Source: a virus
Virus record (IMG/VR): IMGVR_UViG_3300021957_000227
Coordinates: 1 to 28,098 of that record
Direction: 5' to 3' (one strand)
Length of the DNA: 28,098 bases
The translations under genes were made by a program, and so were the position numbers. The notes beneath the pieces are model-generated. The model did no database searches, had not been told where the DNA came from, and was given only the letters and a program-made list of their open reading frames with translations. The number at the start of each line of letters is the position of its first letter. Positions within the stretch are counted from its first letter, which is position 1. Shown here in pieces: positions 10,002 to 28,098 of this stretch.

Positions 10002-10006
10002 CTTGT

Positions 10007-10378
10007 ATGGCAAACTTCAGAGGATTTAATACTGTAGATACAATTAACGCTCCGTATACATTGTCGGGCGATGAACTTGTGAAGCGTGATTTAAAAAACG
10101 AATTCTACACAAAACGTGGAGAAAGAGTTATGCGACCAAACTTTGGTAGCATTGTTTGGGATTTATTAATGGATCCAATGTCACCAAAAGTGGTAACAGA
10201 CATAGAAGAAGATGTCGATAAAATTGTAGCACGTGATCCAAGAGTATCACTATTAAAAACTACAGTAACAGCATTAGAACATGCAATTAGGGTAGACATA
10301 GATTTAAGATTTATACCCACACAAAACGAAGATACTCTGTACTTAATGTATGTCAGAGAAACAGCAGAGGGTATGTAA
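10007..10378 (+). CDS. 25: gp25-like baseplate wedge subunit
   Basis: Baseplate wedge protein that contacts the sheath and helps trigger or template its assembly; the family is conserved from T4 to type VI secretion (TssE). Counting from ATG 10007 the protein has 123 residues, close to T4 gp25 (132 aa). The N-terminal MANFRGFNTVD is typical of marine T4-like versions. The family core follows: LVKRDLKNEFYTKRGERVMRPNFGSIVWDLLMDPMS, with the R-G-E-R-V-M-x-P-x-F-G element equivalent to the R-K-G-x-R-x-F-x-P-x-F-G motif of T4 gp25. An in-frame GTG at 9992 would add five residues but lies inside the late-promoter motif, so I prefer the ATG. The next gene starts three bases after the stop. Confidence 0.9.
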   Translation: MANFRGFNTVDTINAPYTLSGDELVKRDLKNEFYTKRGERVMRPNFGSIVWDLLMDPMSPKVVTDIEEDVDKIVARDPRVSLLKTTVTALEHAIRVDIDLRFIPTQNEDTLYLMYVRETAEGM

Positions 10379-10381
10379 TAG

Positions 10382-13300
10382 ATGGCCAGTAGTAGACAAA
10401 ATAACTTATTTGCGGCAGAAGATTGGAAAATTGCCTATAAAGCATATAGCAAAGTAGATTTTCAGGCGTACGACTTTGACACTATGCGTTCCGCAATGGT
10501 GGATTACATCAGGACAAACTATCCCGAAAACTTTAATGACTTCATTGAAAGTTCAGAATTTGTATCTATAATAGAATTGCTGGCATTCCTTAGCCAAAGT
10601 TTAGCATTCAGAATGGATGTTAATACCAGAGAAAACTTTTTAGAAACTGCTGAGCGAAGAGACTCAGTATTTAAACTTGCAAGAATGTTAGGGTACAATC
10701 CTAAACGTAATTTACCTGCAAGTGGCTTGTTAAAATTAGTGAGCGTGAAAACATCTGAACCTTTAGTAGACAGTTTAGGCACTTCATTGTCAAATAGAAC
10801 TGTGTATTGGGATGATGCAAATAATAGCCAATCCTACGAACAATTCATTACAATAATGAATGCGGCTATGAGTAACACTAATCAATTCTCATCACCAATT
10901 AAGTCAGGTAATATAAACAATATACCTACTGAACTTTATCAGGTTAATACACCAATTAATTCTCCGATTGTGCATAATCTTAATATCACATCATCGGGTT
11001 CAAAAAGACAGTTCAACGTTGTTAATCCAGATTTCAAAGACAATAGTCACTTTTACGAAAGAGAGCCAAGTCCAACAAATTTAATGAACATCATTTATAG
11101 AAATGATGGCGGGGGCCTTGCAAGTAGAAACACTGGATTCTTTAGTTTGATAAAACAGGGTAATTTACAGTTTAAGGACTTTAATTATACTGCGCCAATA
11201 GAAAATAGAATTGAAACAATTACGGTGCCTAACATCAATGAAACCGATGTGTACTTACAGGAAATTGACAGTAACGGTCTTGTTTTAAACGATTGGACTA
11301 AAATTCCTAACACAGTTGGACAAACATTAAACTATAACAGTAAAAGTTTAAACACAAGAAATTTATATTCTGTAGAAAATGCAGGTGCCGATGGAATTAA
11401 AATTAGATTCCCAGACGGAAACTTTGGTAATGTACCAGTGGGTATATTCCGTGTTTGGTATAGAACAAGTGATCCTGCCAGATACACAATTAGTCCAAGT
11501 GAAGCAAAGAATTTAAGTATTACAGTGCCATATGAAAATGCGGCAGGTAAGCAATATGCTGTATCGTTAACATTTAATTTACAGTACGAACTTAATAACA
11601 GTACACCGGCAGAAAGTTTAGCGGCAATTAAAGAACGTGCGCCACAAGTGTTCTATACACAAAATAGAATGGTGTCAGCACAAGATTATAACGTGTTCCC
11701 TCAAAGTCAAAGCACAAACATTGCTAAAATAAAGTCTACAAATAGAACGCATTCCGGACATAGCAGATACATTGATATCAATGATCCGACAGGCGCATAC
11801 CACAATGTGGATACGTTTGCCGACGATGCATACATCTATAATAATATACACAAAACAAGCCAACAAGTTATTGTAAACAATACCACAACTCCAACAGAGG
11901 TTGTGCTTAGTGTGATTACAAACATACTTAAATTACGTAAAGTAAATGATTTTGTTTATTACGGTATGCGAAGCGAGTGGAAAAATCCTACAAAGCCAAG
12001 TGGCAGTTTAGCAAATTTCACATTCGAAGACAGTAATAATGTTAGATGGAATGCACAACCAGTTAAGCCTGAAAGTAAAGTAGGCTATATCACAGAAGAA
12101 TTTACACCCGGTAGTGTTAATGTATTAATAAACAATTCAAATGTTGCCACAGCCAACCATGCTAAAGGCTTAAAAGATAATACATTTATCAAATGGGTAG
12201 ACCCAACTAATGTAACAGATTACAAATGGGCAAGAGTAACAAACATAGAAAATAATGGTGTATTAGGCTCAGCAATATCAACAGCAACTGGTCCGTGGAC
12301 ACTTAGTGAAGAGATTCCAGCAGGGTGGGAAATGAGAGACTTTATTGTTTCTCTTAGAAAGTTGTTTACCACAGCAGAGTTTAACCTCATTGTTGCAGAA
12401 ATTACTGCACAAAGAACTTTTGGTATTGGATACCATTTACAAGATGACTACTGGTATGTTATACCTAACAGTGATTTATCTACATCTGCTAAACAAGGCG
12501 AGTTTGCATTAGACATAAACGGCAAAGGCCCTAACAGTTGGTTATTACTAATGGAATACAGTCCAATAGATGTAAACAACTACAGATACAACATCACTTA
12601 CAGATGTTTAGATTATATTATTCAAAGCGAAGGCTCATTGAAGTTTTACAATATCAACAATTTAAATGAAAGTAATGCTAACAACAGAACATCCAAAGAT
12701 GTAATCACTTTCACAACTGTTAATACTAAACCAGGTGCATACGAAAATTATACATGGAAAGGTAACCTCTGGAGAAATGAAGAATTAGGATTAACAGTCA
12801 CACCAGTGAATCGAATCACAGACATTCCATTGCGTACAAGAAGCACAACATGGAGTGATGTGTCAGTGAATTGGATCAGTAATTTTGGCATACTTAAAAC
12901 AGAAGTAAATGCACCCGATCCTGCAAAAACAAATCAGCAGTTATATGCAGAACATAACGAATACGTTACAGATGCTATTATACCTCTTAACACTTTCCAC
13001 AGTGTAGGTGGTGTTAGCACAGAGACTAACGTTGTTATAGCAAATAACACAGGTAGAATTACATCAATGCCAAGTAAGATTAGCATTCCTTTTAACAATG
13101 CAACATTTGGTACAAATTTTGTTGACACCACAGGTTCAACACCATTTATAACATATAGACAAATAATAGAGAACCAAGGCAGTGGCAGTGAAGTTATATG
13201 GAAAGCAGAACTTGGTAATATCACAGTATCTTCTTATGGTACTAACGGTGACACTTTTGATAATACTATAACAGGTAGATTGCATTTTAAAACATACGAT

Positions 13301-14575
13301 GCCGCCACCGGAATAGGTAGTCTCGAATATGTTAATGTACAAGAAAATGATTTACATTACTCTCAGGATAGAACAGCATTGTTCTCATCAGACAAGTTAG
13401 AAGTATATTACGAAAATAACAAAGAAAAATTAGACCAAGAAATTAAATGGGAAGTACTTGAAACTTACAGAGAGCCAGATGGATACACTGACCCTCGTAA
13501 AATTAGAGTAGCACCACATAATTCGAATGGCGACTTAGTTCCAGATAGACCTTTACAGTTTGAAGAATATGTAGACACCACAGACGAAGTGTTATTTGAA
13601 TACTACACTGATTTTGATGGATATAGATATGATAGACCTATACAAGGTATAGTGTTAGATCTCAGAAACGAAGACGAGTTAACCATTGATAATGCAGGTG
13701 ACAGAATTACACCAGCACGTTATGATAATTGGAAAAAGTTAAGCACAGTTAATTGGTTAATTGTAAAAAATAAAGTTGTAGCAGAAACACTACAGAATAA
13801 AGCAAACGCCAAGGGTGCTGTTGTATTTGTTGTTGATGAATTTAAAACTTATCAACTATTAGCAATTGGTACAACAGGCGAAATTAAACTGGTTGAAACT
13901 AAAGATTATTTTGTTAAACGTGGTAGAGGTAAAACTCAGAACACTGCATCAGCAAGTATTAACTCAGGCACAATTAAGTGGAGCCATGTTGCACCAAATG
14001 ATGTACGCATAGACCCAAGTATTAGCAACATTGTTGAGATGTTGGTATTAACAAGTTCGTATAATGCCCAAGTAAATAAATGGCTCGCAAGGCCAACAGG
14101 CACATTCCCAGCATCGCCAACCAGTGATCAGTTAGGTTCAGAATTTGCAGGGCTAAATACGTATAAGAGTGCAAGTGATACATTAGTATTTAGAAGTGCT
14201 AAATTTAAATTGTTGTTCGGCAATCAAGCAGACGACACAGTTAAGGCTAAGTTTAGAGTGGTAAAATTATCAGATCAATTCAGCGATAACGAATTAAAGT
14301 CACGTATCATTGCATTGATTAATTCTTACTTTGTAGTTAGCAATTGGGAATTTGGCGAAACATTTTACTTCACAGAATTAAGCACATATATACATCAAGA
14401 ATTAGGTAGCTCAATAGGTAGTATAGTTATATTACCTAAAAACACTACAGGGAAATTTGGTGAGATGTTCCAGGTAAAAGCGGAGCCAAACGAATTATTC
14501 TTAAGTACTGCAAGTGTTAATGATATAGAAATCATTGGCAGACTTGATAACCAAACATTACGAGCGGATCGATAA
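10382..14575 (+). CDS. 6: gp6-like baseplate wedge protein, enlarged
   Basis: Main structural element of the baseplate wedge ring, equivalent to the P2 J/TssF-type fold. Residues 1-120 contain YPENFNDFIESSEFVSIIELLAFLSQSLAFRMDVNTRENFLETA and RMLGYNPKRNLPASG, diagnostic for gp6. A second conserved block (about 330-490) includes IRFPDGNFGNVP, GIFRVWYRTS and ESLAAIKERAPQVFYTQNRMVSAQDYNVFP, which matches the baseplate J-like core. The C-terminus (about 1295-1397) again looks conserved: LKSRIIALINSYF, WEFGETFYFTELSTYIHQELG and IVILP. Between these lie about 800 residues of extra beta-rich sequence. T4 gp6 has 660 residues, so this version is twice that length. AGAGGG about ten bases upstream supports the start. 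Confidence 0.88.
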   Translation: MASSRQNNLFAAEDWKIAYKAYSKVDFQAYDFDTMRSAMVDYIRTNYPENFNDFIESSEFVSIIELLAFLSQSLAFRMDVNTRENFLETAERRDSVFKLARMLGYNPKRNLPASGLLKLVSVKTSEPLVDSLGTSLSNRTVYWDDANNSQSYEQFITIMNAAMSNTNQFSSPIKSGNINNIPTELYQVNTPINSPIVHNLNITSSGSKRQFNVVNPDFKDNSHFYEREPSPTNLMNIIYRNDGGGLASRNTGFFSLIKQGNLQFKDFNYTAPIENRIETITVPNINETDVYLQEIDSNGLVLNDWTKIPNTVGQTLNYNSKSLNTRNLYSVENAGADGIKIRFPDGNFGNVPVGIFRVWYRTSDPARYTISPSEAKNLSITVPYENAAGKQYAVSLTFNLQYELNNSTPAESLAAIKERAPQVFYTQNRMVSAQDYNVFPQSQSTNIAKIKSTNRTHSGHSRYIDINDPTGAYHNVDTFADDAYIYNNIHKTSQQVIVNNTTTPTEVVLSVITNILKLRKVNDFVYYGMRSEWKNPTKPSGSLANFTFEDSNNVRWNAQPVKPESKVGYITEEFTPGSVNVLINNSNVATANHAKGLKDNTFIKWVDPTNVTDYKWARVTNIENNGVLGSAISTATGPWTLSEEIPAGWEMRDFIVSLRKLFTTAEFNLIVAEITAQRTFGIGYHLQDDYWYVIPNSDLSTSAKQGEFALDINGKGPNSWLLLMEYSPIDVNNYRYNITYRCLDYIIQSEGSLKFYNINNLNESNANNRTSKDVITFTTVNTKPGAYENYTWKGNLWRNEELGLTVTPVNRITDIPLRTRSTTWSDVSVNWISNFGILKTEVNAPDPAKTNQQLYAEHNEYVTDAIIPLNTFHSVGGVSTETNVVIANNTGRITSMPSKISIPFNNATFGTNFVDTTGSTPFITYRQIIENQGSGSEVIWKAELGNITVSSYGTNGDTFDNTITGRLHFKTYDAATGIGSLEYVNVQENDLHYSQDRTALFSSDKLEVYYENNKEKLDQEIKWEVLETYREPDGYTDPRKIRVAPHNSNGDLVPDRPLQFEEYVDTTDEVLFEYYTDFDGYRYDRPIQGIVLDLRNEDELTIDNAGDRITPARYDNWKKLSTVNWLIVKNKVVAETLQNKANAKGAVVFVVDEFKTYQLLAIGTTGEIKLVETKDYFVKRGRGKTQNTASASINSGTIKWSHVAPNDVRIDPSISNIVEMLVLTSSYNAQVNKWLARPTGTFPASPTSDQLGSEFAGLNTYKSASDTLVFRSAKFKLLFGNQADDTVKAKFRVVKLSDQFSDNELKSRIIALINSYFVVSNWEFGETFYFTELSTYIHQELGSSIGSIVILPKNTTGKFGEMFQVKAEPNELFLSTASVNDIEIIGRLDNQTLRADR

Positions 14576-14583
14576 GGTAACTA

Positions 14584-17500
14584 ATGGCTGATAAAATTTA
14601 TAAAAAACTACCCGGAGTATTGCAAACTACTGCAATTAAAAACTTCTTCGAGAGTACAGTTGAGCAATTATTTAGTAAGGCAAATGTAGATAATGTTCAA
14701 GGCTATATTGGTTCTCCAACAAGCAGTGACGTGGGTGCAAGTAGTAAGTTCCTGTCGGAGCCAACTGCAACAAAAAGATCCTATGCTCTAAGTCCAGTTA
14801 TAAACACTATTAACATTTCATCTGGTGACAGTGAAAATATGATGTTCTACGATGAGTTAATTGATACTCTCAGAGTATATGGTGTTGACACAAAAAATCA
14901 AAATAAAATTTTTAGCGAAGGGTATGCAACTTATACTCCTCCAATTGACGCAGATAAATTATTAAACTATCAAGAATACTATTGGGTAACATCTGGTCCT
15001 ACTCCGATTGCTGTAACAGGAACATTAACCAATCCAATAGACATAGACACTGATATCATTGGCAAAGCAAATTATACACCCAATGGTGGTAAGAAATTCC
15101 GCAACGGCATGCTTGTTGAATTTAGTGGTACGTTTGTTATACCACAAAACAAAGTAAGCAGAAAGTATATTGTAAGCGGTGTTGGCGAGTCTATTAAATT
15201 ATTAGATTGGTTTAGCGATTATAATACTGCATATTCAAGTGCAGAACAGTCGTTGTATAATTCGGACAATGTTGTAAATGCTAAAACAGACGCTAAAGTA
15301 TTAGTAAACCCAAATACAAATAGATTTACATTTGCTGGAGGCTCATTGAATTGGGCAAAAGTTGGTGAAGTTAGCGATGCTATTGTTTCACCTAAAGATT
15401 ACATATTACAAGAACGTGGCGCAGAAAATGATAACACATGGAGCAGAGTAAACTTTTGGTTCCACAGAGATAATTTCTTAGATGCAGGTGACGGTTTACC
15501 TGACAGAACTAAACGTGCTGTCAGACCTATTATAGAATTCAATAAAGAATTAGAATTATACAGTCATGGTGTTAATTCACAAGGTAGTGTAACAATTGCA
15601 TGTGTTAATTACACAAAAGAAACATTAGAAGGCCTATCAGAAGATACATTAGTTGACGGTGTAAACATAATTAATGCAACACTTATTTTTCCAACAGAAA
15701 GTAAGGACATTGCAAAACATATTTACATTGCAGAATCTAACAGTGGCGTTATTGCACTAAGACGTGTAGGCGACCCAGTAAAAAATATTGACAACGTAGT
15801 TGATGGTAGTGAAACATTTGTACCATTTGAATTTGCAGTAGATGATCTCATAAAAGTACAAGCAGGTTCAGTAGGCATTGGCAAAGAGTATAAATGGACA
15901 GGCTTAGAATGGGTATTAGCACAAGAAAAAACAAGAGTTAATCAAGCACCTCTGTTTAATTTATATAACACTGATGGTACATATTTAGGTGATCAAGGTG
16001 TGTTCCCAGAAAACAATTTTGCTGGTAACAAGATATTTGGTTATGCAGAAAAAGCCGACATTGCAAGTTCCACATTAAGTGTTAACGAAGATACAGAGCT
16101 TGGATTTAAAGTTGTTTACAAACAGTTTGTAGCCGGCAGTGAAATATTATTTCAAAACTATCAGTATACTGATTCTTATAGTTACACGCCGTTAGGTAGT
16201 GGTTCAAGCACAGATGCAATTGGTTATTACTATTATAAATTGCTAAAAGCAAAACCTGAATTCCAAGCATACATGAAAGTGTCTGATAAAGTCAGCGAAC
16301 AAAGAATAATTACAACTTACGATTATAATCAATTTAATTTTGATAAGTCTAAAAAAGATTTTTGGATAGGTTGTAAACCAGACATTAACAGATCAACAGC
16401 AAGTGGTTATGATATTGATATTAAAGTTAATAACATTATCAGAACAGATTTCACTTACGGAAGATTGCAAGAAGGATACATTGACTTTGACCAACTAAAT
16501 TTAGAAGTAGGTGACTTCATAGAAATTATTGCAACCAGTGAGTCAGGCTTAATTAAAGAAGGCACAGAAAGTAACTTTGAAATTCCACTGAGCTGGGATA
16601 GAAACTGGTTGAACGACGATATAAGTTATATCACTGAACCAGAGTATTTGCCACATTTTAAAAAATACATTGAGAGACAAGATGGATTTGTTGGCGAGCC
16701 TCTTGGTGCTAATAATTTTGCTAACAGCAAAAAAGATAATGCGTTTGCAACGGATATAGTACAATCAAATCAAGACATTATATTAGGTGCATTCTTACTT
16801 GACGACCAACCACATAACTTAGTAGATGCTATGCGTTTCTGTGGTACTGAATATAACAAGTACAAAAATAGATTAAAAAGCGAAGTAAACAAATACTACG
16901 AGCAACTACCGACTGATGGTTTAAGCAAGGAGTATATTTTAGAAACTGTTTTGAGAAACTTACTGTCATACAAAATAGGCAGAGAAGTATTTAATAGAAC
17001 ATATATTGTACCTTTTGGCGATAACTTCACCGAAGAATTATTTGTAGCATCTAATCAGATCAGAGAAATTGATAGAACATTTGTTAGCACAAATATTGCA
17101 GACTTAGATAAAATAGAAAACAGTTTATTAGTTTATGTCGACACAGATTTATTAGTAGTGGACAAAGATTATACTATCAGTTCTTTCAGTCCATTAACAG
17201 TTGTAGTAAGCGAAAGTTATAACTTACAAGCAGGCAGTGATGTTGTATTTAAAATATACAATGCAGAAAGAGACAGTGCCCAGTGTCCACCGACTCCGAG
17301 TACAATGGGTCTATATCCATTATACCAGCCAGAGATAGCAATGGACAATAGTTATGCAACACCTATTAAAGTTGTTGTAGGACATGACGGCAGTAAGACA
17401 ATGGCTGTAGGTGATATCAGAGATGATATACTACTTGAATTTGAAAAGAGAGTTTATAACGCCGCTAAAGCAGAATTCCGTCAAGCAAACAGTGTAAGCG

Positions 17501-20500
17501 ATTACAGTTTATATAATGTACGTAATGGTGCATTTAGGCAAACAAATTATTCATATAACGAGTTCCATGACTTGATGCGTTACTACTTTAATACTTGGAC
17601 AAACGTCAATGAATTAGACCCTACCACAAACGAATTTTATGACACAAACGATGAGTGGACATGGAACGTAGGTGACAAAGATTTACCTGCAGGATGGAGA
17701 GGCTGGTACGAATATCATTATGATACAATTAGACCTCATACACATCCTTGGGAAATGTTAGGCTTCACAGAAAAGCCTGTATGGTGGGATAAACAATATT
17801 CTTTCTATGCAGAAGATGATTTATTAAAACAAACATTGCTAACAGGTAATTATTCTTTAGCAAATAAAAGTCTTTGGGTTGATTTAGAAAACGGTATTAT
17901 AAGACAAGGTAATAGAGAAAATATTACAAACAATCGTTACTTAATCAATAATCCTTTTAGAAGAGTTGGGCTGTCATCTTTATTACCAGTTGACATGCAA
18001 GGTAATAGAATTGCACCAAATAGAATAAGCAACACTGGTACAACTGAGATTGCTGAAACATGGACAAGCACAACAGGAACACATATTGGCTTGCAAACAA
18101 ACACATTTAGAGATGTAGACGGTTTAACAATTAGTCATAACGGTACTTCTGTGTTTGTTGAATTAATCAATAACGGTATAGATGCAAAGTATAACGTTCC
18201 TATTGTAACAGATTTAAGTCAAAGCCCACTAAATTCTTCGCAGATGAAAGAAAATGCTGTGGCAGTAATGGTTGACGGCAAACCACTGTTTAATCCAAAA
18301 AGCAATTTAAGTTTTAACAATGAAGATGTATGGCATTATGATCGAATTGCAAAAAGTCATACACATGATATTGAATTAGATCATTATCATACTCCAACTC
18401 CGGCAAGTGCAGGTTTATTGGAGTGGGATACAACTGCACATTCACCTTTGATTGGTTGGGCATTTGATGGCTTCCCAATTTACGGTCCATATGGTTACAC
18501 AGATCCAATGGATGTTAGCAGTGATATAACAAACATAAAAAGTTCATTTGTTGTAAAAACAGGAACAAGATTATCAGGTCCAGGTGGAACGTTTACTGGA
18601 TCATTTGTACAAGACTACACATGGAATAATTCATTATCAACTGCAAACGGATATGCAGACAAGTTTAACATGCGTTATGGTTATACTCCTGACAGTCCTA
18701 CAACACCTATTAGATATTATGTTGCTACAGTAGACGACAGTGGTACTCCTATGTTCCCTTATGCAGTTGGTGGTAACACAACCACATTCGATACTGCTAT
18801 AACATGGAATAACGAATACTATCAACAAGGTCCAGCAATCAATGGCATTAACAAATTTATTGTCACAGAAAAAGGTGGACAATATACTAATGCAACTGTA
18901 ACTATCACAGACGATACAGGAATCAACGCAGTAGGAACAGCAGTAATAGAAGATGGTGCTATAACAAGCATAACTGTAACCAACAGCGGACAAAGTTATA
19001 CAAACCCTGTTGTGACTATCACAGGTGACGGAGTTAGAGCTAAAGCATCAGCATTTGTACTCAACAGTGATAGCAGTAATCACAATGCAGTAGTACCAAC
19101 AACAGGCTTAACTATTGCAAGTAGATCAGCATTAACTAAAACATTTGCACAAACTGGTAACACAGACGGCATTTGGAAATTTGGTGATAATGCACCAGTT
19201 GAATATGTGTGGAAGTCCAGTGAACTATTTGCATTTGCTCAGGCAGAAGCATTACTGATTTCCAAGCCAGGTAGATTTGCTACTATATTCTCAGACCCAA
19301 CAAAACTTGCAAGACACGGAGCAAACAGAAAACAGTTGTTTAACAAAACAACATTAAAACGTTGGATGTTTAATAGTGCAGATGATTTTACCATACATGG
19401 TGACATAGACGACAATGGTAACTTCTTAACAAATATTGGTTACACTCAATTTATAAACAGTTGGTTACAGTTCCAAGGCCTAACCACAGACATAGACTTT
19501 GTTGAAAAAGTTAGAACACTAAACATGAAACTTGGTCACAGAATGAGTGGCTTCATTGACAGAGATACAATGGTTGCACGTACTGATCAATACAGTACAA
19601 CAGGTAATGCAACAAGTTTAATTATACCTAAAGAAAATATTAATGTATCATTGCACAGTTCAAATTACAAAACACGTGCAAACTACAGTGGCGTAATTGT
19701 TGAGAAATCAGCACACGGATATAAAGTAAAAGGATACGACAATAATTCAGGTTTCTTTAATGTATTAGAAAGTAAAAAGGATGGTAAGAGACAACGTGTT
19801 GAAGTAGGCGGTGATCCTGCATCATACACAATTTGGGAACCAAGCATCACTTACAAAAAAGGCATTATTGTTGAGAGACTGGGTAGATACTACCAAGCAC
19901 CTATAACACTAAGCCAGGGTGATAAGTTTAATCAGAAACAATGGACTCCGTTGCCAAGCCTACCGCAAATTGGTGCAGTAAGAGGAACACTGTATCAAGA
20001 AACAACAGGCGTAATTACTCGTGTACATTACAACACTGAATTTAAACATGATGCAGATAATGACATCACAGCAGAAGAACAATTATATGATTTCTTTATT
20101 GGATTAGGTAGATATCAAGAATCACAAGGATATTCTTTTGGTGAACACGACAGTTCATTAGGCGAAGTTAGCGATTGGGCGTATGCTGGAAAACAAGCAC
20201 TATTTTGGGCATCAGGTAGATGGGAAATTGGTAACACAATTGAATTATCACCTTGTGCAAATAAAGTTATATTTGAAGCACCACGTGGATTTATTGCTAA
20301 GATTAATAGATCAGACAGAGAACAATTTAGCATTGTTAATCAAACAGGTGCAGTTATTGATCCAAACGACTGTGAAATAGTTAGAGAAGACAACACTATA
20401 GTAATTTCTTCACCAGCAGGTGTAGACATTTACGGTTGCGTATTATTCACTAAAGAAATTGAACATGCTGTCATATTTGATAACACAACAGAATTTAACG

Positions 20501-23500
20501 ATACTATATATAATCCATTATATAATCAAAGACAAAACAGAATTAAGATTAAGGCTAACAGAGCCGCTAACTGGAAAGGACGTTTTGTAACTGAAGGCTT
20601 TATAATTGACGGCAATGAATTAAAACCAAACTTAGATAACATGGCTGAAAGTTTAGGTCGCTACCATGAGTTTGGATTTATACCAGTTGAAAAACAAGTT
20701 TATGAAGCAAGTAGATCTTTGTTTGGTTACACAGAAAAAGAATACTTACGTGAGTTAGATGTTCTCGATGAGCAACAATACGAATTCTATAGAGGCATGG
20801 TACAAAGCAAAGGTACTGCCGAAGCATTAAGCAGAATAGGAAGAAGTAGTGCTATTGTTCAAGGTAATGTTAGTGTATTTGACGAATGGGCTCTTAAAGT
20901 GGGCGACTTCGGTGACACTGACAGTAATCAAAGCATTGAACTAAAGTTAGAGAAAGTAGACTTTAGACAAAATCCACAGCAGTTTACATTAGGCTTTCCA
21001 GAAGATGTTACAAACGTAGTTGATACTATTAGAATATATGAAGCAAGACAAACATATATTACTACACCATTAATTGAAGTGTCAGCACCAACCGATGTTG
21101 ACGGTGTACAAGCAACTGCCGTGGCAACACTTGACCCAGCAACAAACAAATTAAATAAGATTACTGTTACTAACGCAGGTAGCGGTTATAGTTCAGGTGA
21201 TGCAACAACAAGAATTATTTCAAGTAATGTTCTTGTAAGCACAAACGATTATACGTTTAACGTGCCTACTGCTGATAACCTAAGTGGTGTTAACAGTCAT
21301 ATTACTTTTGCAACAACAAACACTATTACTATCACAGATAACCAAAGTGCCAACGGTGCTATTGCTATCAGTGTAACAGGCGAGTCAGGTAATGTAACAC
21401 CAACAGAATTAGTTGATGCTATTAATACTAAACCAGAATTGGGTGGCAACGTTAGTGCAAGAATTGATGCAGTTCACACAGGCACAACTACAAATTATAT
21501 ATTGATGTTGTCAGGTAAAGACTTTACAGTTGCAAACGGTTCTACATTAGGTGTAGCAGATGGTACATACCAACCAACACAGAGATTTGCTGTACAAGGA
21601 ACTGCGGCCAGTAGTTTAAATCCTACTACCGAAGATTCTTGTGTTATAACAGTAAACGATACAGCACTGGCTAATTCATACTTTAGTTTTGATGAAGGTA
21701 GTGACCAAACATTTAGTCCTACACAAAACTATCCACGTATTGACACAACAAGCAGAGACTTATCTGCAGGTGATTATACATTTGATATGATTGCTAACAG
21801 TGAAGAATTAGCATATACTTTTGGCACAGCAATTGATGTAAACAATCTTGCCAAAGACAACAACGGCAAATATAAGTTTGTAGAAGTTTATATAAACGGT
21901 GTTAAGATAGAAAACACAACAACAGACTATTTCTGGGAAGGTAATGTTACAGGGAATATTTCAGGTACATTATTTACACTGACACAAAATGTTATTACTT
22001 TCCATGATGTAACAAAACTACCAAAAGAAGTAGTTACAGCATTGTACAACCCACCGTCAGAATACGAAATGATTGATGGGAAACAACGTGAACTATACTA
22101 TGGTCTAACTGCAAACGATACAATTAGAATTGTTGAAAAATCAACAATAGAGTTAGACACAACATTTAAAGACGACTTGCCTAATACAGATATTAACATA
22201 AAAGTATTATCAAACGAGGGAGTTGTAACAAACGTTAGGGCGGCACGTAATTATGAAGTTACTGCTGACGCTAAAGATGACGATATTATTTTTATAGATG
22301 TTGATGACTCGCAGAGATTCCTCAAGAAGCCAACAGGAATTAGACAGCACAAATTATGGCCTACATTATCTGATGTAGATGCTACAGGATTAAACACTGA
22401 AAAGTACCCTACAATATTAAATTCAGGTTATGTAAACTCAGCAAATGTAAACTTCAAAGCATTTAACATTGGCAGTTTACCAGATCTATTTGATGATCAG
22501 TTTGTTATTAAACCTCAACAAGATAATCTCATACATGTTGCAGTAAGTGAAAACACAGACTGGAACGTTTATAAATTACAAAACATTGGTGCAAGTGTAA
22601 GTTATGTTGGTAAAAACAAAAGTGGCCAAACAAAATTATATACAGATGTAAGTTTGTTCAATTTCTTAGACACAAATCAAATTGGCTTAAACAACACAGG
22701 AAAATATTTAGATTATATATTAACATTAGAAAATGCTAAAAATGTTGATAATGTTGTGGTATGGACCAACGAGAACATTTCACAAGAAAATACAAGTAAA
22801 ATTGATAATTTTGAAGCACCTCGTTTAGTTGAAGCAAATATTAAGAATATTAGACCTTTACGTAGAGCATCCATTGCTTCGGTTGAACCAACAATTGGTA
22901 ATACAGTATCAGGACTTACTATTACAAACTTAGATGATGGCAGTAATACTGTGTTAGTTGAAGGTCCTGCAACAAGAATGCGTAATTTTGTAGAAGGCGA
23001 TTTAGTTAAATTAGTTGACAATGTGGGTACCACAATTACTAAACCAATTGCATACGGGCCATTATCAGGTTCTACTCTAACAATTAATTCAGGTGCAGTA
23101 AGCAGTGTTAATCTCAGCACAGGCGGTATAGGATATAATAGACCACCATCTGTTGCATTCTCATCACCACCTGCATCATATACAGGCAGAGTTACAGCAG
23201 AAGGCACAACTACAATTGCTGGTCCAGTAACCGGCATTACTGTTACTAACAGCGAAGATTTCTTCAATGCAGATATTTCTATTAGCAGTGAATTTGCAAA
23301 ACTTAAAACAGATGGAACAAAAGATAATGCAACGTTCACAGTTGACATCATAGGTGAAATTGATTCTATTGAGATAACAAATCCGGGCATAGCGTATTCA
23401 AATACTACAACACACACTGCCACAATAACACACAATGGCGGTAGTGGTTTAGTTGTTCAAATTGATGGCACATTAGATGTATCAGAAGCAGGTGAAGTTA

Positions 23501-26500
23501 TACGTGCAAGAGTTGTCAATCCAGGTTCTGGATACAGTAAAAATAATCCACCAGTTGTGACTTTCCCTACTAACGGTAATAATCAAGAAGCAACAATGGA
23601 AGTTGTTGTAAGAGGTACGCCTACAGTAACAATGGTTGAGGGTGGTCAATACACCAGTTATCCAACAGTTAGTGTAGTTGGCGAAGGGATTAGACAATCA
23701 TCAACTATATCTGCAGAAGCAGTATTAAATGGTGTAGTAACGGGTGTCATTATCACAAAGCCAGGCGTAGGATATACCTCAGCACCAACTGTTACTTTTG
23801 CAACACACGGAGATGATGCTGTACCAAGTACTCCAGCATCTGGGACAGCAATTATAACACCTAACACTACAGAGCTTGCCGCAGAAGTTACTGCAAAAGG
23901 TGGTTACAGTAATGTTAAAGTAAAACTTGAAGGTACTATACTACCAGAATTAGAATTTATAGCAAATCAAACTACTGCTGAAAAACTTGAAATACAACAA
24001 CTTAAAAGTATTTTAGGAAAGTATCATCAATTGAAATCATTTAATCCAGGAACAGGCACATTCACTGTCAACAATACTAATTTTAATACAAATATTTTAA
24101 CTAAGATACAAAACTTCAGTTACAGCATTGCAGTGTTTAATGATTACAGCACAGGTGTTGCAAATCCTTATTACCCAATTAGTAATGTAACAGCAGGTTC
24201 ATTTACAATTACACGAGCAAACACCGAAAGCTCATTCCCGGCATCAGCACAACATTACAACAAATCAAAATTAGTAATGGATCAACCTCACACATACCAA
24301 GAGGCAGATGTAGTGAGAGTGTTCACTGATAAATTCAGTGGTATGTACACTGTTGATTCTGTGATAAACAATATGTCATTTACAATCAGAGCTCCTTACG
24401 TTAGTGGAGTAACAAGAGGTAATGTAATTGGCAAAGGCATAATTATTGAAACCATAGAACCACATGGTATATCACCGCTTTATGCATTAAAAGATAAAAG
24501 AATTGCATTACACTTTAATAATCCGTTGTATTATAACAAAGTGTTCCCTATTTCACGTGTATCGCCAGATAAAATTATTATAGAAAATCATTGGCCGTTA
24601 GACGATAGAACTTTACATTATTACGAACACCGCACTGCTATATTCAGTGGTGGTACACCGTATACAAGTGGTGGTAATACAGATACAGCCACAAACGCAA
24701 TTAAGTTACTCAAAGACACACCTAAGTTTAATCAAACTGTGGTAACATATAAGAGTAATGCAGAGATTGTGCCTGCAAAATATGTAAACTTTGATCCTGT
24801 AGAATGTGTAATGTGGATAGACACTGAAGCATTGCCAACAAATACAGATATCAGTACTGAGTTTGTGATACAACGACAAATAACAAGAAACGATAATAGA
24901 TTACCTGTAGTGACCACTGTTGATCATAACAAGGTGGAAATGAACGGCGTATCAATTGCCGCTGATAATTATAACAACCCAACTGCACTTGTTAAAAGCA
25001 TTAACAGACAGATGGACATTAGACGTGCAATGGTTAAAACTGATACACGTGGCGATGGTTTATCAATGCAATTGGCATTCTTAAAAGATTATCGAACACC
25101 TGTAGTGGGTGACTTACCAGCCGCACAAATTCCTAACTATGGTCCGTATGTAAGAGACCCAAGATTGATTAGTAATTTAAGTAATGGTAAATTATCACAA
25201 AAGTCAACAATCTTTATGGGCGATGATCAAGAGTTAGATTTAGACAACACATTTAATAAAGGGCCATTAAAGTCAGGACCATCTAAGGGACTAACATATT
25301 CTGATCCAGCAACAGAAATTGAATATTCTTACAGACCAGATTTAAGAGCATACTTGCCAAGTAAGCACGACATAGAAGAAAAATATGTTGATGTTAAACT
25401 GTCAGCAACAAGTGACTTCCAGCAATTACTACCTGAGTTCCACACTCCGATTAGGATTAGAACAGCACCTCCGGAATGGAAAGCATCAGAAGACATAGCA
25501 TCTAATTATGGTGATCAAGTATACAGTGGCGGCACAATTGTAAAATATAATAATGAATATTATCAAGCATTAGGTGGCGTAGTAGTTGAGCATAACTTAA
25601 CATTTACCACAAGTGTTAGCGGACAAGATCAATGGGAAAATATAGGCACTAAGCCTGAGCCATTATTAGATGAAATAAACTCTGGTTTAATAATTAAAAA
25701 GATACCCGGCTCTGGAAGATTTGGAAGTCGTAGCATCACAGCAGGACACGTATTATCTAAATATGACATGCTACAGACTCGTGCAGTTACTGACCCAGAA
25801 GGCGGCAGTGATATCACACTACCAGCATATCGTTTGATGCCTAACAGAGAAAACATTTTCGAAGTATACCAACTTATACAAAACACTGACAATGATATCT
25901 ATTACACGCTCATAGACAAAACATACCCTCCTCTAAGAGCACACGATTACTTTGAAACAGTTAATGCTTATGCAGATATGCAAGGCTATCCGCACAACGA
26001 TTACTGGTACACAAATGACATGGTGCCAAGCACTAACAGTAGCGGAAAAATTACTAATGTAAGATGTCCTCTGAGAAGTACACAGCAATCATCTAACATA
26101 CAACTTCCACCAGTTGAACCAGCATTGTATTTTGGTCCTACGATAGTACCAGAACCGTTTGCTGTGTCAGGCGGTAACGGCAGTAATGCAGAAGCAAACA
26201 TTGAAGGTATGCCAAGGTTTAGAGCCTCTACAAAAGTTGGCCCACAAGGAGAAACTGTATACTTTGATGTGTTCAAACCAGGTTATAATGACTTCTTTAT
26301 GTGGACAGCAGGTTTAACACCCGGTAAATATAGACCGGATGAAAAAGGACCGGGCAGACTCGAAGGTGCTAATAATAATTTAACATCTGTAGGTTATGGC
26401 AGAGGATATTATACAGCAGATGATGTTCATTTGTCAAGTCATTATCCTGTAGAAAGAAGATTACGTTGGGATAGACCAATGCCAAGATTCTTGTACAGTA

Positions 26501-28098
26501 AGAATTTTGAAATAATACCCGAATTTAAAAATTATGAAAATACATTCTATTTAGATAATTTAGGTAACCCTGTTGATGTTGATCAACAAGGCGAAGAGGG
26601 TGTTGTAGCATACAGTTATGTACCTTCAGACAATTATGCATCTACAAATGATGAAAACATTGTTAATACTAAATTTAGACCCGAAGAAGTATTTGTTGCT
26701 TGTTTCTGGACTGAACCACATACTTATGAAAATCAGTTAGTGGGTTATAACAGACGTAATTTAAGTAATGATTTAACAGGCGCTACTTACCCTAAAGCAG
26801 TATATAAAAATTATGAGGGTACAGTAACAAGAGTTAAGTATATTAGATTATCAGAATTACCAGCCACAGCTCAAACAAGAAGAATTATACCAGACACAGG
26901 ATGGGGCGGTAAGGAATGGAATAACTTACGAGTCGACGATGTGATACCTGCATTTACAGGAACGAGCGAAGACGATATTTGGAATATTTTTGATCCAACA
27001 CCAGTTGTAGCAGGTAGCACAGGTGACGCCAACGAATCAATTCCACGAGTAGGCAAAAATATAGATCTTGCTACACCAACAAGATCCAGTCCAATAGATA
27101 TGTTTAATGGATTGTTAGACACTACAAAAGGGTTAGACAAAGTTCCTGCCACTGAAGCAGGACCTATTATGACAGGTGCTATACTTGAAGGCCTTGTAGG
27201 CCCATGTGAAGTAATAGCGGCGCCTGATTCCATACCAGTTGATAACTCATCGGATAGTTGTGTGCGTAATACTACGCCTTCGCATAAGCAGGTGCTATTA
27301 GATAATACATCAGAAGAATGGTTTACATATAATATGCCAGTTGCATTAAATGGTATAACAGGTGATGCAGAGTTCGACTATAATCAAAACTCAGCAGACA
27401 ATCCAGATATATCATCTAAGATATGGGCAAAAACATTCAAGATTTATAATGACCCTGCTGAAAATGTTACTAATACAGGACATACATTCCGTGTGTTGTT
27501 TAACTTCTTAGCATCGCAAGACTTATATAATTCCGGTAGTGTGTTTATTGTACAAAGTGGTATGGAGTTTGATTTTGAGATTGGTGATACAGCAGAAGCA
27601 AAAGCAAATAAAACTGAAATAATAAAGGAATACTTTGCAAACCCAAGTACTATAATTAGAAGGTCTACTATTAGTAGCGGTAACGATTTCTTTAATAACG
27701 GTTCACAGATTAATCAATATGGTGTCGATCCTATGACACCTATTAAGGGCGGTGGCGAAACAACAAAATTTATTCAGAATGCAGATGCAGATCAATTTAC
27801 TAATCTTGCACTACACTCATCTATAGTTGATACTATTATAGAACCAGGTAAAGATTTTATTGGGTCAGACCAAATCTTTGATGTTGGCTCTACCTCAGCA
27901 AGTTCAGAAATACAAGTAGACACAAACCACATAGCAATGGACACGTATGCATATCAAGCCGAAGCAGATAACTCGTTTGATATTGCGGTTCATACACTAA
28001 ATAACCACCCAGATACAGCAGTTAAAGGTGTTGGATTTATAGAACAAAAACTGTCATGTGAAGATGGTCAATATGTAACAGTGTTTGTGCGTTTATCC
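14584..28098 (+). CDS. giant baseplate/tail structural protein (at least 4505 aa), 3' end beyond window
   Basis: One uninterrupted frame from ATG 14584 to the right edge; I translated every codon and found no stop. AAGG at 14574-14577 serves as ribosome-binding site. Segments I recognise from large structural proteins of marine T4-like phages include SRVNFWFHRDNFLDAGDG (about 287-304), GLYPLYQPEI with GHDGS and LLEFEKRVYN (909-960), RPHTHPWEMLGF with KPVWWDKQYS (about 1051-1074), GYTQFINSWLQFQGL (about 1619-1634), YRGMVQSKGTAEALSRIGR (about 2070-2088) and LKKPTGIRQHKLWPTL (2580-2595). Further modules are a YHYH domain, Gly-Tyr strand repeats and two putative carbohydrate-binding patches. It follows gp6, where T4 has gp7 (1032 aa), so a peripheral wedge or fibre-like role is inferred. 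No catalytic site is evident. Composition and codon use match the neighbours. Confidence 0.85.
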   Translation, partial: MADKIYKKLPGVLQTTAIKNFFESTVEQLFSKANVDNVQGYIGSPTSSDVGASSKFLSEPTATKRSYALSPVINTINISSGDSENMMFYDELIDTLRVYGVDTKNQNKIFSEGYATYTPPIDADKLLNYQEYYWVTSGPTPIAVTGTLTNPIDIDTDIIGKANYTPNGGKKFRNGMLVEFSGTFVIPQNKVSRKYIVSGVGESIKLLDWFSDYNTAYSSAEQSLYNSDNVVNAKTDAKVLVNPNTNRFTFAGGSLNWAKVGEVSDAIVSPKDYILQERGAENDNTWSRVNFWFHRDNFLDAGDGLPDRTKRAVRPIIEFNKELELYSHGVNSQGSVTIACVNYTKETLEGLSEDTLVDGVNIINATLIFPTESKDIAKHIYIAESNSGVIALRRVGDPVKNIDNVVDGSETFVPFEFAVDDLIKVQAGSVGIGKEYKWTGLEWVLAQEKTRVNQAPLFNLYNTDGTYLGDQGVFPENNFAGNKIFGYAEKADIASSTLSVNEDTELGFKVVYKQFVAGSEILFQNYQYTDSYSYTPLGSGSSTDAIGYYYYKLLKAKPEFQAYMKVSDKVSEQRIITTYDYNQFNFDKSKKDFWIGCKPDINRSTASGYDIDIKVNNIIRTDFTYGRLQEGYIDFDQLNLEVGDFIEIIATSESGLIKEGTESNFEIPLSWDRNWLNDDISYITEPEYLPHFKKYIERQDGFVGEPLGANNFANSKKDNAFATDIVQSNQDIILGAFLLDDQPHNLVDAMRFCGTEYNKYKNRLKSEVNKYYEQLPTDGLSKEYILETVLRNLLSYKIGREVFNRTYIVPFGDNFTEELFVASNQIREIDRTFVSTNIADLDKIENSLLVYVDTDLLVVDKDYTISSFSPLTVVVSESYNLQAGSDVVFKIYNAERDSAQCPPTPSTMGLYPLYQPEIAMDNSYATPIKVVVGHDGSKTMAVGDIRDDILLEFEKRVYNAAKAEFRQANSVSDYSLYNVRNGAFRQTNYSYNEFHDLMRYYFNTWTNVNELDPTTNEFYDTNDEWTWNVGDKDLPAGWRGWYEYHYDTIRPHTHPWEMLGFTEKPVWWDKQYSFYAEDDLLKQTLLTGNYSLANKSLWVDLENGIIRQGNRENITNNRYLINNPFRRVGLSSLLPVDMQGNRIAPNRISNTGTTEIAETWTSTTGTHIGLQTNTFRDVDGLTISHNGTSVFVELINNGIDAKYNVPIVTDLSQSPLNSSQMKENAVAVMVDGKPLFNPKSNLSFNNEDVWHYDRIAKSHTHDIELDHYHTPTPASAGLLEWDTTAHSPLIGWAFDGFPIYGPYGYTDPMDVSSDITNIKSSFVVKTGTRLSGPGGTFTGSFVQDYTWNNSLSTANGYADKFNMRYGYTPDSPTTPIRYYVATVDDSGTPMFPYAVGGNTTTFDTAITWNNEYYQQGPAINGINKFIVTEKGGQYTNATVTITDDTGINAVGTAVIEDGAITSITVTNSGQSYTNPVVTITGDGVRAKASAFVLNSDSSNHNAVVPTTGLTIASRSALTKTFAQTGNTDGIWKFGDNAPVEYVWKSSELFAFAQAEALLISKPGRFATIFSDPTKLARHGANRKQLFNKTTLKRWMFNSADDFTIHGDIDDNGNFLTNIGYTQFINSWLQFQGLTTDIDFVEKVRTLNMKLGHRMSGFIDRDTMVARTDQYSTTGNATSLIIPKENINVSLHSSNYKTRANYSGVIVEKSAHGYKVKGYDNNSGFFNVLESKKDGKRQRVEVGGDPASYTIWEPSITYKKGIIVERLGRYYQAPITLSQGDKFNQKQWTPLPSLPQIGAVRGTLYQETTGVITRVHYNTEFKHDADNDITAEEQLYDFFIGLGRYQESQGYSFGEHDSSLGEVSDWAYAGKQALFWASGRWEIGNTIELSPCANKVIFEAPRGFIAKINRSDREQFSIVNQTGAVIDPNDCEIVREDNTIVISSPAGVDIYGCVLFTKEIEHAVIFDNTTEFNDTIYNPLYNQRQNRIKIKANRAANWKGRFVTEGFIIDGNELKPNLDNMAESLGRYHEFGFIPVEKQVYEASRSLFGYTEKEYLRELDVLDEQQYEFYRGMVQSKGTAEALSRIGRSSAIVQGNVSVFDEWALKVGDFGDTDSNQSIELKLEKVDFRQNPQQFTLGFPEDVTNVVDTIRIYEARQTYITTPLIEVSAPTDVDGVQATAVATLDPATNKLNKITVTNAGSGYSSGDATTRIISSNVLVSTNDYTFNVPTADNLSGVNSHITFATTNTITITDNQSANGAIAISVTGESGNVTPTELVDAINTKPELGGNVSARIDAVHTGTTTNYILMLSGKDFTVANGSTLGVADGTYQPTQRFAVQGTAASSLNPTTEDSCVITVNDTALANSYFSFDEGSDQTFSPTQNYPRIDTTSRDLSAGDYTFDMIANSEELAYTFGTAIDVNNLAKDNNGKYKFVEVYINGVKIENTTTDYFWEGNVTGNISGTLFTLTQNVITFHDVTKLPKEVVTALYNPPSEYEMIDGKQRELYYGLTANDTIRIVEKSTIELDTTFKDDLPNTDINIKVLSNEGVVTNVRAARNYEVTADAKDDDIIFIDVDDSQRFLKKPTGIRQHKLWPTLSDVDATGLNTEKYPTILNSGYVNSANVNFKAFNIGSLPDLFDDQFVIKPQQDNLIHVAVSENTDWNVYKLQNIGASVSYVGKNKSGQTKLYTDVSLFNFLDTNQIGLNNTGKYLDYILTLENAKNVDNVVVWTNENISQENTSKIDNFEAPRLVEANIKNIRPLRRASIASVEPTIGNTVSGLTITNLDDGSNTVLVEGPATRMRNFVEGDLVKLVDNVGTTITKPIAYGPLSGSTLTINSGAVSSVNLSTGGIGYNRPPSVAFSSPPASYTGRVTAEGTTTIAGPVTGITVTNSEDFFNADISISSEFAKLKTDGTKDNATFTVDIIGEIDSIEITNPGIAYSNTTTHTATITHNGGSGLVVQIDGTLDVSEAGEVIRARVVNPGSGYSKNNPPVVTFPTNGNNQEATMEVVVRGTPTVTMVEGGQYTSYPTVSVVGEGIRQSSTISAEAVLNGVVTGVIITKPGVGYTSAPTVTFATHGDDAVPSTPASGTAIITPNTTELAAEVTAKGGYSNVKVKLEGTILPELEFIANQTTAEKLEIQQLKSILGKYHQLKSFNPGTGTFTVNNTNFNTNILTKIQNFSYSIAVFNDYSTGVANPYYPISNVTAGSFTITRANTESSFPASAQHYNKSKLVMDQPHTYQEADVVRVFTDKFSGMYTVDSVINNMSFTIRAPYVSGVTRGNVIGKGIIIETIEPHGISPLYALKDKRIALHFNNPLYYNKVFPISRVSPDKIIIENHWPLDDRTLHYYEHRTAIFSGGTPYTSGGNTDTATNAIKLLKDTPKFNQTVVTYKSNAEIVPAKYVNFDPVECVMWIDTEALPTNTDISTEFVIQRQITRNDNRLPVVTTVDHNKVEMNGVSIAADNYNNPTALVKSINRQMDIRRAMVKTDTRGDGLSMQLAFLKDYRTPVVGDLPAAQIPNYGPYVRDPRLISNLSNGKLSQKSTIFMGDDQELDLDNTFNKGPLKSGPSKGLTYSDPATEIEYSYRPDLRAYLPSKHDIEEKYVDVKLSATSDFQQLLPEFHTPIRIRTAPPEWKASEDIASNYGDQVYSGGTIVKYNNEYYQALGGVVVEHNLTFTTSVSGQDQWENIGTKPEPLLDEINSGLIIKKIPGSGRFGSRSITAGHVLSKYDMLQTRAVTDPEGGSDITLPAYRLMPNRENIFEVYQLIQNTDNDIYYTLIDKTYPPLRAHDYFETVNAYADMQGYPHNDYWYTNDMVPSTNSSGKITNVRCPLRSTQQSSNIQLPPVEPALYFGPTIVPEPFAVSGGNGSNAEANIEGMPRFRASTKVGPQGETVYFDVFKPGYNDFFMWTAGLTPGKYRPDEKGPGRLEGANNNLTSVGYGRGYYTADDVHLSSHYPVERRLRWDRPMPRFLYSKNFEIIPEFKNYENTFYLDNLGNPVDVDQQGEEGVVAYSYVPSDNYASTNDENIVNTKFRPEEVFVACFWTEPHTYENQLVGYNRRNLSNDLTGATYPKAVYKNYEGTVTRVKYIRLSELPATAQTRRIIPDTGWGGKEWNNLRVDDVIPAFTGTSEDDIWNIFDPTPVVAGSTGDANESIPRVGKNIDLATPTRSSPIDMFNGLLDTTKGLDKVPATEAGPIMTGAILEGLVGPCEVIAAPDSIPVDNSSDSCVRNTTPSHKQVLLDNTSEEWFTYNMPVALNGITGDAEFDYNQNSADNPDISSKIWAKTFKIYNDPAENVTNTGHTFRVLFNFLASQDLYNSGSVFIVQSGMEFDFEIGDTAEAKANKTEIIKEYFANPSTIIRRSTISSGNDFFNNGSQINQYGVDPMTPIKGGGETTKFIQNADADQFTNLALHSSIVDTIIEPGKDFIGSDQIFDVGSTSASSEIQVDTNHIAMDTYAYQAEADNSFDIAVHTLNNHPDTAVKGVGFIEQKLSCEDGQYVTVFVRLS
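18241..18780 (+). other. YHYH domain inside the giant structural protein
   Basis: Residues about 1220-1399 show the YHYH-family order: VMVDGKPLFNP, then HTHDIELDHYHTP, then LIGWAFDGFPIYGPYGY, and closing YADKFNMRYGY with RYYVATVDDSGTPMFPYAVGG. The histidine cluster and GWAFDGFPIYGPYG are the hallmarks. The family occurs in secreted and surface proteins of bacteria and in phage virion proteins; its biochemical role is not established. The His-rich core could bind metal, but that is a guess. Confidence 0.75.
18841..19050 (+). repeat. first pair of Gly-Tyr beta-strand repeats in the giant protein
   Basis: Residues about 1420-1489 hold two divergent copies of a unit built as I-x-x-F/I-x-V-T-x-x-G-x-x-Y-T-N-x-x-V-T-I-T followed by A-x-A-x-V. 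Copies read KGGQYTNATVTIT and SGQSYTNPVVTITG. They follow directly after the YHYH domain and are related to the longer array at 23041-23860. Confidence 0.6.
19801..19980 (+). other. possible carbohydrate-binding (CBM5/12-like) patch 1
   Basis: Residues about 1740-1799 follow the W-x-P-x-x-x-Y-x-x-G-x-x-V-x-x-x-G-x-Y-Y-x-A pattern, ending with W-T-P-L. This spacing of aromatic residues is seen in chitin-binding modules of the CBM5/12 type and in similar modules of phage tail proteins. The copy is degenerate, and I call it only from aromatic spacing. Confidence 0.35.
23041..23860 (+). repeat. array of about five Gly-Tyr beta-strand repeats in the giant protein
   Basis: Residues about 2820-3092 contain GIGYNRPPSVAF, GIAYSNTTTHTATI, GSGYSKNNPPVVTF, GGQYTSYPTVSVVG and GVGYTSAPTVTF, each flanked by V/I-rich strands and A-x-A/V segments. 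The spacing is about 35-55 residues. Copies differ at the DNA level, so this is an old protein repeat rather than a recent duplication. The unit suits a beta-solenoid or stacked sandwich stalk. Confidence 0.65.
25501..25680 (+). other. possible carbohydrate-binding (CBM5/12-like) patch 2
   Basis: Residues about 3640-3699 read Y-G-D-x-V-Y-S-G-G-T-I-V-K-Y-N-N-E-Y-Y-x-A followed after about 25 residues by Q-W-E-N-I-G. The Y-x-G-x-x-V-x-Y-x-x-x-Y-Y-x-A ... W core is the usual aromatic frame of CBM5/12 modules. It resembles patch 1 at 19801-19980 and suggests sugar binding at the cell surface, without proof. Confidence 0.4.

What the first reader, a model, noticed from the sequence alone, without database searches (positions are those of the whole stretch)
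14584..28098. Giant open frame of at least 4505 codons after gp6
A single frame fills 13,515 bases, almost half the window, with no stop or internal break. T4 has gp7 (1032 aa) in the place after gp6. Even truncated, this product is larger than nearly all known virion proteins. It looks like a mosaic: segments shared with marine T4-like structural proteins, a YHYH domain, Gly-Tyr repeat arrays and aromatic patches resembling carbohydrate-binding modules. It may have absorbed the jobs of several T4 wedge and short-fibre proteins.
Basis: partly seen in the sequence, partly recalled or inferred. Interest (0 to 1): 0.7.

Follow-up and report, generated by a model that had tools for sequence, protein, structure and literature searches.

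The report
Giant, domain-inflated phage baseplate-region protein
This is the first 60% of a roughly 7,550-residue phage virion protein, an extra-large aquatic version of a giant tail protein already found in jumbo-phage particles, built from a conserved frame with sugar-binding and YHYH domains inserted into it; unusual in size but not a new kind of thing.

Summary
The open frame is real (14584-28098, 4505 codons, cut only by the contig end; chance about 10^-147). A relative 96% identical over the shared part (IMGVR_UViG_3300047382_000745) holds the whole gene: 7,548 aa, 832 kDa, then an unknown gene, a tail-fibre gene with an S74 chaperone and an Ig/cadherin-like protein.

It belongs to a known family (PHROG 10938) of giant proteins after gp25-gp6 in PA5oct, RaK2, 121Q, Atu_ph07 and SCTP-2. 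Mass spectrometry found the PA5oct and phAPEC6 members in virions. The conserved frame (about 2,900 aa) is broken by two insertions: a YHYH domain, and a 2,000-4,200-aa stretch with Gly-Tyr repeats and (beyond the window) a GLEYA/PA14 lectin-like domain. Both mark one clade of aquatic phages. A CBM5/12-like module sits in the frame.

It has gp7's place, but no detectable similarity to T4 gp7 or to the equally giant cyanophage proteins at the same place. gp8 is undetectable in 11 relatives. Most likely a baseplate-periphery scaffold carrying host-surface-binding domains; 'absorbed several wedge and fibre proteins' is only partly supported. Giant proteins there are known (6,737 aa in S-WAM1; up to 7,694 aa in huge phages).

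The parts
14584..28098 (+). N-terminal 4505 codons of the giant virion protein (3' end cut by the contig end; 7,548 aa in the near-identical relative)
14574..14577 (+). AAGG Shine-Dalgarno-like site overlapping the gp6 stop codon
   Evidence: sequence printed
14584..18027 (+). Frame block A (residues 1-1148), shared by all family members
18235..18729 (+). YHYH domain (PF14240), inside a 310-450-aa insertion between blocks A and B that marks the aquatic long clade
19174..21102 (+). Frame block B (residues 1531-2173)
19825..19959 (+). CBM5/12-like (chitin-binding type 3) module inside block B
21103..28098 (+). First part of the long B-C insertion (4,224 aa in full in the relative)
23095..23964 (+). 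Gly-Tyr repeat zone, 25-37% identity to segments of the cyanophage S-RIM50 giant protein (limits approximate, taken from the relative)
10382..14575 (+). gp6-like baseplate wedge protein (1397 aa)
9992..10378 (+). gp25-like baseplate wedge protein
6908..9577 (+). gp5-like baseplate hub / tail lysozyme
4422..6905 (+). virion structural protein (phrog_11190)
4105..4419 (+). gp53-like baseplate wedge protein
3143..4105 (+). virion structural protein (phrog_12050)
2131..3006 (-). late sigma factor (gp55-like)
1115..2131 (-). SbcD-like (gp47) nuclease subunit
1..1113 (-). SbcC-like (gp46) subunit, incomplete

Best explanation
The frame is the N-terminal 60% of a single, roughly 7,550-residue virion protein of a jumbo-type contractile-tailed phage, a member of the giant protein family PHROG 10938 that follows gp25 and gp6. 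The likely working: three conserved blocks (A, B and C plus the C-terminus, about 2,900 aa) fold into a scaffold at the edge of the baseplate wedge, next to gp6, in the place where T4 has gp7. Two spots in that scaffold tolerate insertions, and in one clade of aquatic phages they were filled with what are probably surface-exposed domains: YHYH (a proposed metal-dependent hydrolase), Gly-Tyr repeat spacers and a GLEYA/PA14 lectin-like domain. A CBM5/12-like module in the frame itself points the same way, to binding of cell-surface polysaccharide before the tail contracts. Shown: ORF, full length in a near-identical relative, family, conserved frame, insertions and their clade, synteny. Supported from relatives: presence in virions. 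Inferred: wedge location, sugar binding, role in adsorption.
For: Intact 7,548-aa ORF in a relative 96.2% identical over the shared part; dN/dS 0.14. PHROG 10938 E 1e-242 on the window part and 4e-71 on the C-terminal part. Same gene order (SbcC, SbcD, late sigma, structural, gp53, structural, gp5, gp25, gp6, giant) in PA5oct, RaK2, 121Q and XaC1. PA5oct gp355 (3,857 aa) carries the record note 'ESI-MS/MS'; phAPEC6 gp245 (381.88 kDa, 17 unique peptides, next to baseplate wedge gp244) is in the published virion proteome. Ninety ORFs hold blocks B and C together, with B-C inserts from 163 to 4,224 aa. All 32 members of the tree with inserts over 2,000 aa form one side of a branch, SH-aLRT 100; every long member in which it can be measured has the A-B insertion, and 10 of 10 insertions scanned carry YHYH. 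The insert is shared at 31-48% identity with independent contigs. CBM5/12 fold in block B: Foldseek probability 0.98-1.00, rmsd 1.9-4.5 A on about 50 residues of chitinase and deacetylase modules. GLEYA/PA14 in the insert.
Against: No solved structure resembles blocks B or C as wholes, so the wedge location rests on gene order and on relatives' mass spectrometry. PHROGs files the family under 'head and packaging', which may be a loose label but is not 'tail'. Whether the protein is one chain in the virion or cut is unknown; phAPEC6 coverage is only 7.6%. The CBM5/12 E-values are weak (0.04-0.5) although probabilities are high. No sugar-binding assay exists.
Confidence: 0.72

Rival explanations
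1. It is a true, extremely diverged T4 gp7 (wedge initiator) that has grown by insertion, and it has also taken over gp8 (and perhaps gp9/gp10) functions.
For: Same place after gp25-gp6. gp8 family PF09215 rings in T4 and S-RIM50 but in none of 11 family members; PF07880 (gp9/10 N-terminus) rings only weakly in 2 of 11. PHROG hits to 'baseplate wedge subunit' families, though through the YHYH domain.
Against: Profile-profile comparison of blocks A, B and C with a T4 gp7 family alignment gives probabilities under 1%; no gp7 chain among PDB hits by sequence or fold. Block A was not folded.
Confidence: 0.3
2. It is a peripheral fibre, whisker or decoration protein rather than a wedge component.
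For: Adhesin-like modules and huge variable insertions; phAPEC6 virions carry unassigned hairy fibres on the sheath and decoration proteins on the tail; PHROG category is 'head and packaging'.
Against: Constant place in the wedge operon after gp6 across divergent phages; a conserved 2,900-aa frame is more than a fibre anchor needs; separate tail-fibre genes follow.
Confidence: 0.2
3. It is a polyprotein or self-processed precursor cut into several virion proteins.
For: Some relatives carry the same blocks in two adjacent genes (5,035 + 3,390 aa; 5,538 + 3,025 aa), and the first of these split forms, and a further contig like it, have a complete Hint/intein domain right at the break.
Against: Most relatives keep one chain; neither the window part nor its relative has a Hint domain; no protease site was identified.
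Confidence: 0.15
4. Assembly artefact or chimaera joining unrelated genes.
For: None beyond size and metagenomic origin.
Against: Independent contigs show the same ORF and the same insert; low dN/dS across the ORF.
Confidence: 0.01

Closest known systems
PA5oct gp355 and relatives (PHROG 10938; Wroclawvirus)
   Same: Frame blocks A, B, C and C-terminus (30-39% identity in the matching stretches), same gene order; marked as detected in virions
   Different: 3,857 aa; no YHYH insertion; B-C insert only 272 aa
RaK2 ORF070 / 121Q gp582 / phAPEC6 gp245
   Same: Same frame, same operon position; phAPEC6 member in the virion proteome
   Different: About 3,325 aa; B-C insert about 165 aa; no YHYH insertion
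Atu_ph07 gp180, Sinorhizobium phage Phosso and SCTP-2 gp140
   Same: Same frame; Atu_ph07 and Phosso already carry a 1.45-kaa B-C insert
   Different: 4,449, 4,555 and 3,807 aa; no YHYH insertion
Kyanoviridae giant protein after gp6 (S-RIM50 'gp7' 6,405 aa; S-WAM1 6,737 aa; P-SSM2 5,195 aa)
   Same: Same genomic place after gp6, similar size; S-RIM50 shares YHYH (39% identity) and Gly-Tyr repeat segments
   Different: No detectable similarity of the frame blocks by profile-profile comparison
T4 gp7
   Same: Position after gp6
   Different: 1,032 aa; no detectable sequence or profile similarity
VrlC of pelagimyophages and cyanophages
   Same: Reported to replace T4 gp7 in marine T4-like phages (PMC7029224)
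   Different: Sequence relation not tested here

Membership tests
Giant virion protein family PHROG 10938 | Significant profile match | tested here: met
   E 1.1e-242 (window part), 3.6e-71 (C-terminal part of the relative)
Giant virion protein family PHROG 10938 | Conserved blocks A, B, C and C-terminus in order in one ORF | tested here: met
   A and B in the window, C and C-terminus in the 96% identical relative
Giant virion protein family PHROG 10938 | Gene order SbcC-SbcD-sigma / gp53-gp5-gp25-gp6-giant | tested here: met
Giant virion protein family PHROG 10938 | Product present in virions | not testable with these tools
   shown for relatives only: PA5oct record note, phAPEC6 gp245
T4 gp7 (wedge initiator) | Sequence or profile similarity to gp7 | tested here: not met
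   hhalign probability under 1% for blocks A, B, C
T4 gp7 (wedge initiator) | gp7 fold | tested here: inconclusive
   models of B (pLDDT 78) and C (pLDDT 80) match no gp7 chain in the PDB; block A not modelled
T4 gp7 (wedge initiator) | Gene directly after gp6 | tested here: met
T4 gp7 (wedge initiator) | Binds gp6, gp8 and gp10 and starts wedge assembly | not testable with these tools
   needs biochemistry or cryo-EM
Kyanoviridae giant post-gp6 protein | Frame similarity | tested here: not met
   hhalign of blocks A, B, C against all parts of a six-member alignment, best probability 1.6%
Kyanoviridae giant post-gp6 protein | YHYH and Gly-Tyr repeat modules | tested here: met
YHYH domain | PF14240 above its curated cut-off | tested here: met
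   86.6 bits against 25
YHYH domain | His triad plus Asp proposed to bind zinc | tested here: inconclusive
   DHYH at residues 1266-1269 and FDGFPIYG are present; catalytic residues not mapped one by one; prediction from PMC7824862
CBM5/12 chitin-binding module | Fold and aromatic spacing | tested here: met
   Foldseek probability 0.98-1.00 to chitinase and deacetylase modules, rmsd 1.9-4.5 A, but E only 0.2-0.5; sequence E 0.036-0.12
VrlC | Similarity to VrlC | not tested
   no VrlC alignment was built

The most novel reading that the evidence does not exclude
Two lineages of contractile-tailed phages (the cyanophage type and the RaK2/PA5oct type), whose frames show no detectable kinship, have each replaced T4 gp7 (and in this lineage also gp8) with one giant protein that serves as a growing cassette for host-surface-binding domains, sharing modules such as YHYH and Gly-Tyr repeats; in one aquatic clade it reaches about 830 kDa per copy.
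Probability: 0.25. Interest if true: 0.65.

Novelty: new variant of a known kind. Interest (0 to 1): 0.4.

Why it matters
The frame/insert dissection turns a single odd giant ORF into a family with a measurable growth history: a constant 2,900-aa scaffold, two insertion spots, and one clade in which both were filled. It gives jumbo-phage structural biologists a definite candidate for the density next to gp6 in PA5oct- and RaK2-type baseplates, and marine virologists a marker clade of aquatic phages. It also corrects an easy misreading: such proteins are not rare freaks but a common solution at the gp7 position.

Tried and rejected
Searched for T4 gp7 kinship by tblastn, profile-profile comparison, PDB sequence search and fold search: nothing. 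Ephrin-receptor, SH2, GAPDH and bunyavirus Gc hits are read as chance (E above 0.03, poor rmsd). The PHROG 'head closure Hc2' hit on residues 365-475 of the second piece lies in or beside the Gly-Tyr repeat zone and is read as a repeat-borne match, not a head protein. The weak TcdB_N Pfam hit (E 0.099, below cut-off) is read as chance. Whole-frame kinship with the cyanophage giant protein was tested and not found. The assembly-artefact idea was rejected by independent contigs. Two first attempts at search for related loci failed on the wrong frame.

Full report
Observation. The window holds one open frame from ATG 14584 to its last base. The window is the complete 28,098-base IMG/VR contig, so the frame is cut by the contig end. 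At this composition the chance of 4505 codons without a stop is about 10^-147. The start codon has an AAGG site 6 bases upstream, overlapping the stop of gp6.

Full length. A search with residues near the cut end found one close relative, IMGVR_UViG_3300047382_000745. Read in full, it has the same gene order and an intact ORF of 7,548 aa (832 kDa), 96.2% identical to the window over 4505 residues. dN/dS over the shared part is 0.14. After it come a 226-aa protein (phrog_11259; homologue of PA5oct gp357), a 746-aa tail-fibre protein with a Peptidase_S74 chaperone, and a protein of at least 1,415 aa with Ig/cadherin-like domains.

Family. The window part matches PHROG 10938 at E 1e-242 and the C-terminal part of the relative at 4e-71. 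Giant homologues lie in the same kind of operon in PA5oct (3,857 aa), Atu_ph07 (4,449), Phosso (4,555), SCTP-2 (3,807), RaK2 (3,326), Vibrio phage 2.275.O (3,771), XaC1 (3,332) and 121Q (3,323). The PA5oct record marks its member 'ESI-MS/MS'. phAPEC6 gp245 (381.88 kDa, 17 unique peptides, 7.6% coverage) is in that phage's published virion proteome (PMC7247149), and its position next to baseplate wedge gp244 was checked here. In IMG/VR at least 486 and 576 matching stretches encode relatives of blocks B and C.

Anatomy. Aligning the family gives a conserved frame: block A (residues 1-1148), block B (1531-2173), block C (6395-7020 of the relative) and a conserved C-terminus. Ninety ORFs among the fetched loci hold B and C together; the B-C distance runs from 163 aa (XaC1) to 4,224 aa (this protein, the longest single-ORF insert seen). 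Long inserts (over 2,000 aa) always go with a second insertion of 310-450 aa between A and B wherever both can be measured; members with short inserts have under 80 aa there. All ten A-B insertions scanned carry a YHYH domain, as does the window (E 2.7e-24). A tree of block B, which leaves the inserts out, puts all 32 long members on one side of a branch with SH-aLRT 100. The long insert is shared at 31-48% identity between independent contigs, so it is inherited. One long-clade contig (3300024228_000554) is 339,794 bases, which suggests jumbo-sized genomes.

Domains. Block B contains a CBM5/12 chitin-binding-type module: PDB sequence hits at E 0.036-0.12 and Foldseek probability 0.98-1.00 on about 50 residues of the AlphaFold model (mean pLDDT 78). 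A chain of the Agrobacterium phage Milano baseplate is among those hits. Gly-Tyr repeats at about residues 2838-3127 match the giant protein of cyanophage S-RIM50 at 25-37% identity. Beyond the window edge the insert has a GLEYA/PA14 lectin-like domain (E 8e-11 and 1e-8). YHYH has been predicted to be a metal-dependent hydrolase tied to tail and baseplate proteins (PMC7824862), and YHYH and other carbohydrate-binding domains are noted in marine T4-like baseplate operons (PMC7029224).

Is it gp7? By position yes; by descent not shown. Profile-profile comparison of A, B and C with T4 gp7 relatives gives probabilities under 1%, and no gp7 chain appears in PDB sequence or fold searches. Block C's model strongly matches only 16 predicted viral proteins in BFVD; the named ones are the Atu_ph07 structural protein and uncultured-phage proteins, two of them called 'YHYH domain' proteins. 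The giant proteins of cyanophages at the same place (4,749-6,737 aa) share YHYH and repeat modules, shown for S-RIM50, but not the frame (best hhalign probability 1.6%). gp8 (PF09215) rings in T4 and S-RIM50 but in none of 11 family members; gp9/10 (PF07880) rings weakly in two. This agrees with, but does not prove, the idea that the giant covers more than one T4 wedge protein.

Working model. The frame forms a scaffold at the edge of the baseplate next to gp6; the inserts are surface-exposed binding (and perhaps hydrolytic) domains for host polysaccharide. Membership, length, frame, inserts and clade are shown. Virion presence is known for relatives. Wedge location and sugar binding are inferred.

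How novel. Giant proteins at this place are established: S-WAM1 6,737 aa in a public record, and proteins up to 7,694 aa in huge phages, some tentatively annotated as structural (PMC7162821). What is added here is the resolved full length, the frame/insert anatomy, the single YHYH-plus-long-insert clade, and the lack of detectable kinship between the two giant families that occupy the gp7 place.

Noticed in passing
L032 residues 4861-5020 of the ORF starting at 5426 (contig 3300025070_000121; same in 3300006752_000025); L121 ORF 2-3487, residues 991-1150: Relatives with the giant protein split into two genes carry a complete Hint/intein domain (PF14890, E 8e-10 and 6e-12) right after the GLEYA lectin domain, ending in VHN|M or VHN|S about 15-20 residues before the stop; the rest of the protein is the next gene, with its own start. 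A possible self-cleaving or trans-splicing junction.
   Followed up: partly
contigs 3300006752_000025 (5,035 + 3,390 aa) and 3300017967_000052 (5,538 + 3,025 aa): Clean two-gene versions of the giant protein, split inside the long insert; summed length about 8,400-8,600 aa.
   Followed up: partly
window 14584-28098 against IMGVR_UViG_3300047382_000745: Synonymous divergence falls along the gene from about 0.28 (codons 1001-1500) to 0.04 (codons 4001-4500), which suggests recombination; in codons 4001-4500 dN/dS is about 0.7, in the insert ahead of the lectin-like domain (small counts, near the contig end).
   Followed up: no
S-RIM50, S-RIM8, S-ShM2, S-WAM1, P-SSM2, S-T4 (L004, L182-L186): Every cultured cyanophage looked at has its own giant ORF (4,749-6,737 aa) directly after gp6 (or the gene in its place), unrelated in frame to this family by the test used.
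   Followed up: partly
IMGVR_UViG_3300047382_000745, reverse complement 38684-42928 (L009:1-4245, minus strand): Open-ended ORF of at least 1,415 aa with bacterial Ig and cadherin-like domains, third gene after the giant ORF, probably another adhesin.
   Followed up: no
window 10382-14575: The gp6-like protein is also enlarged: 1,397 aa against 660 aa in T4.
   Followed up: no
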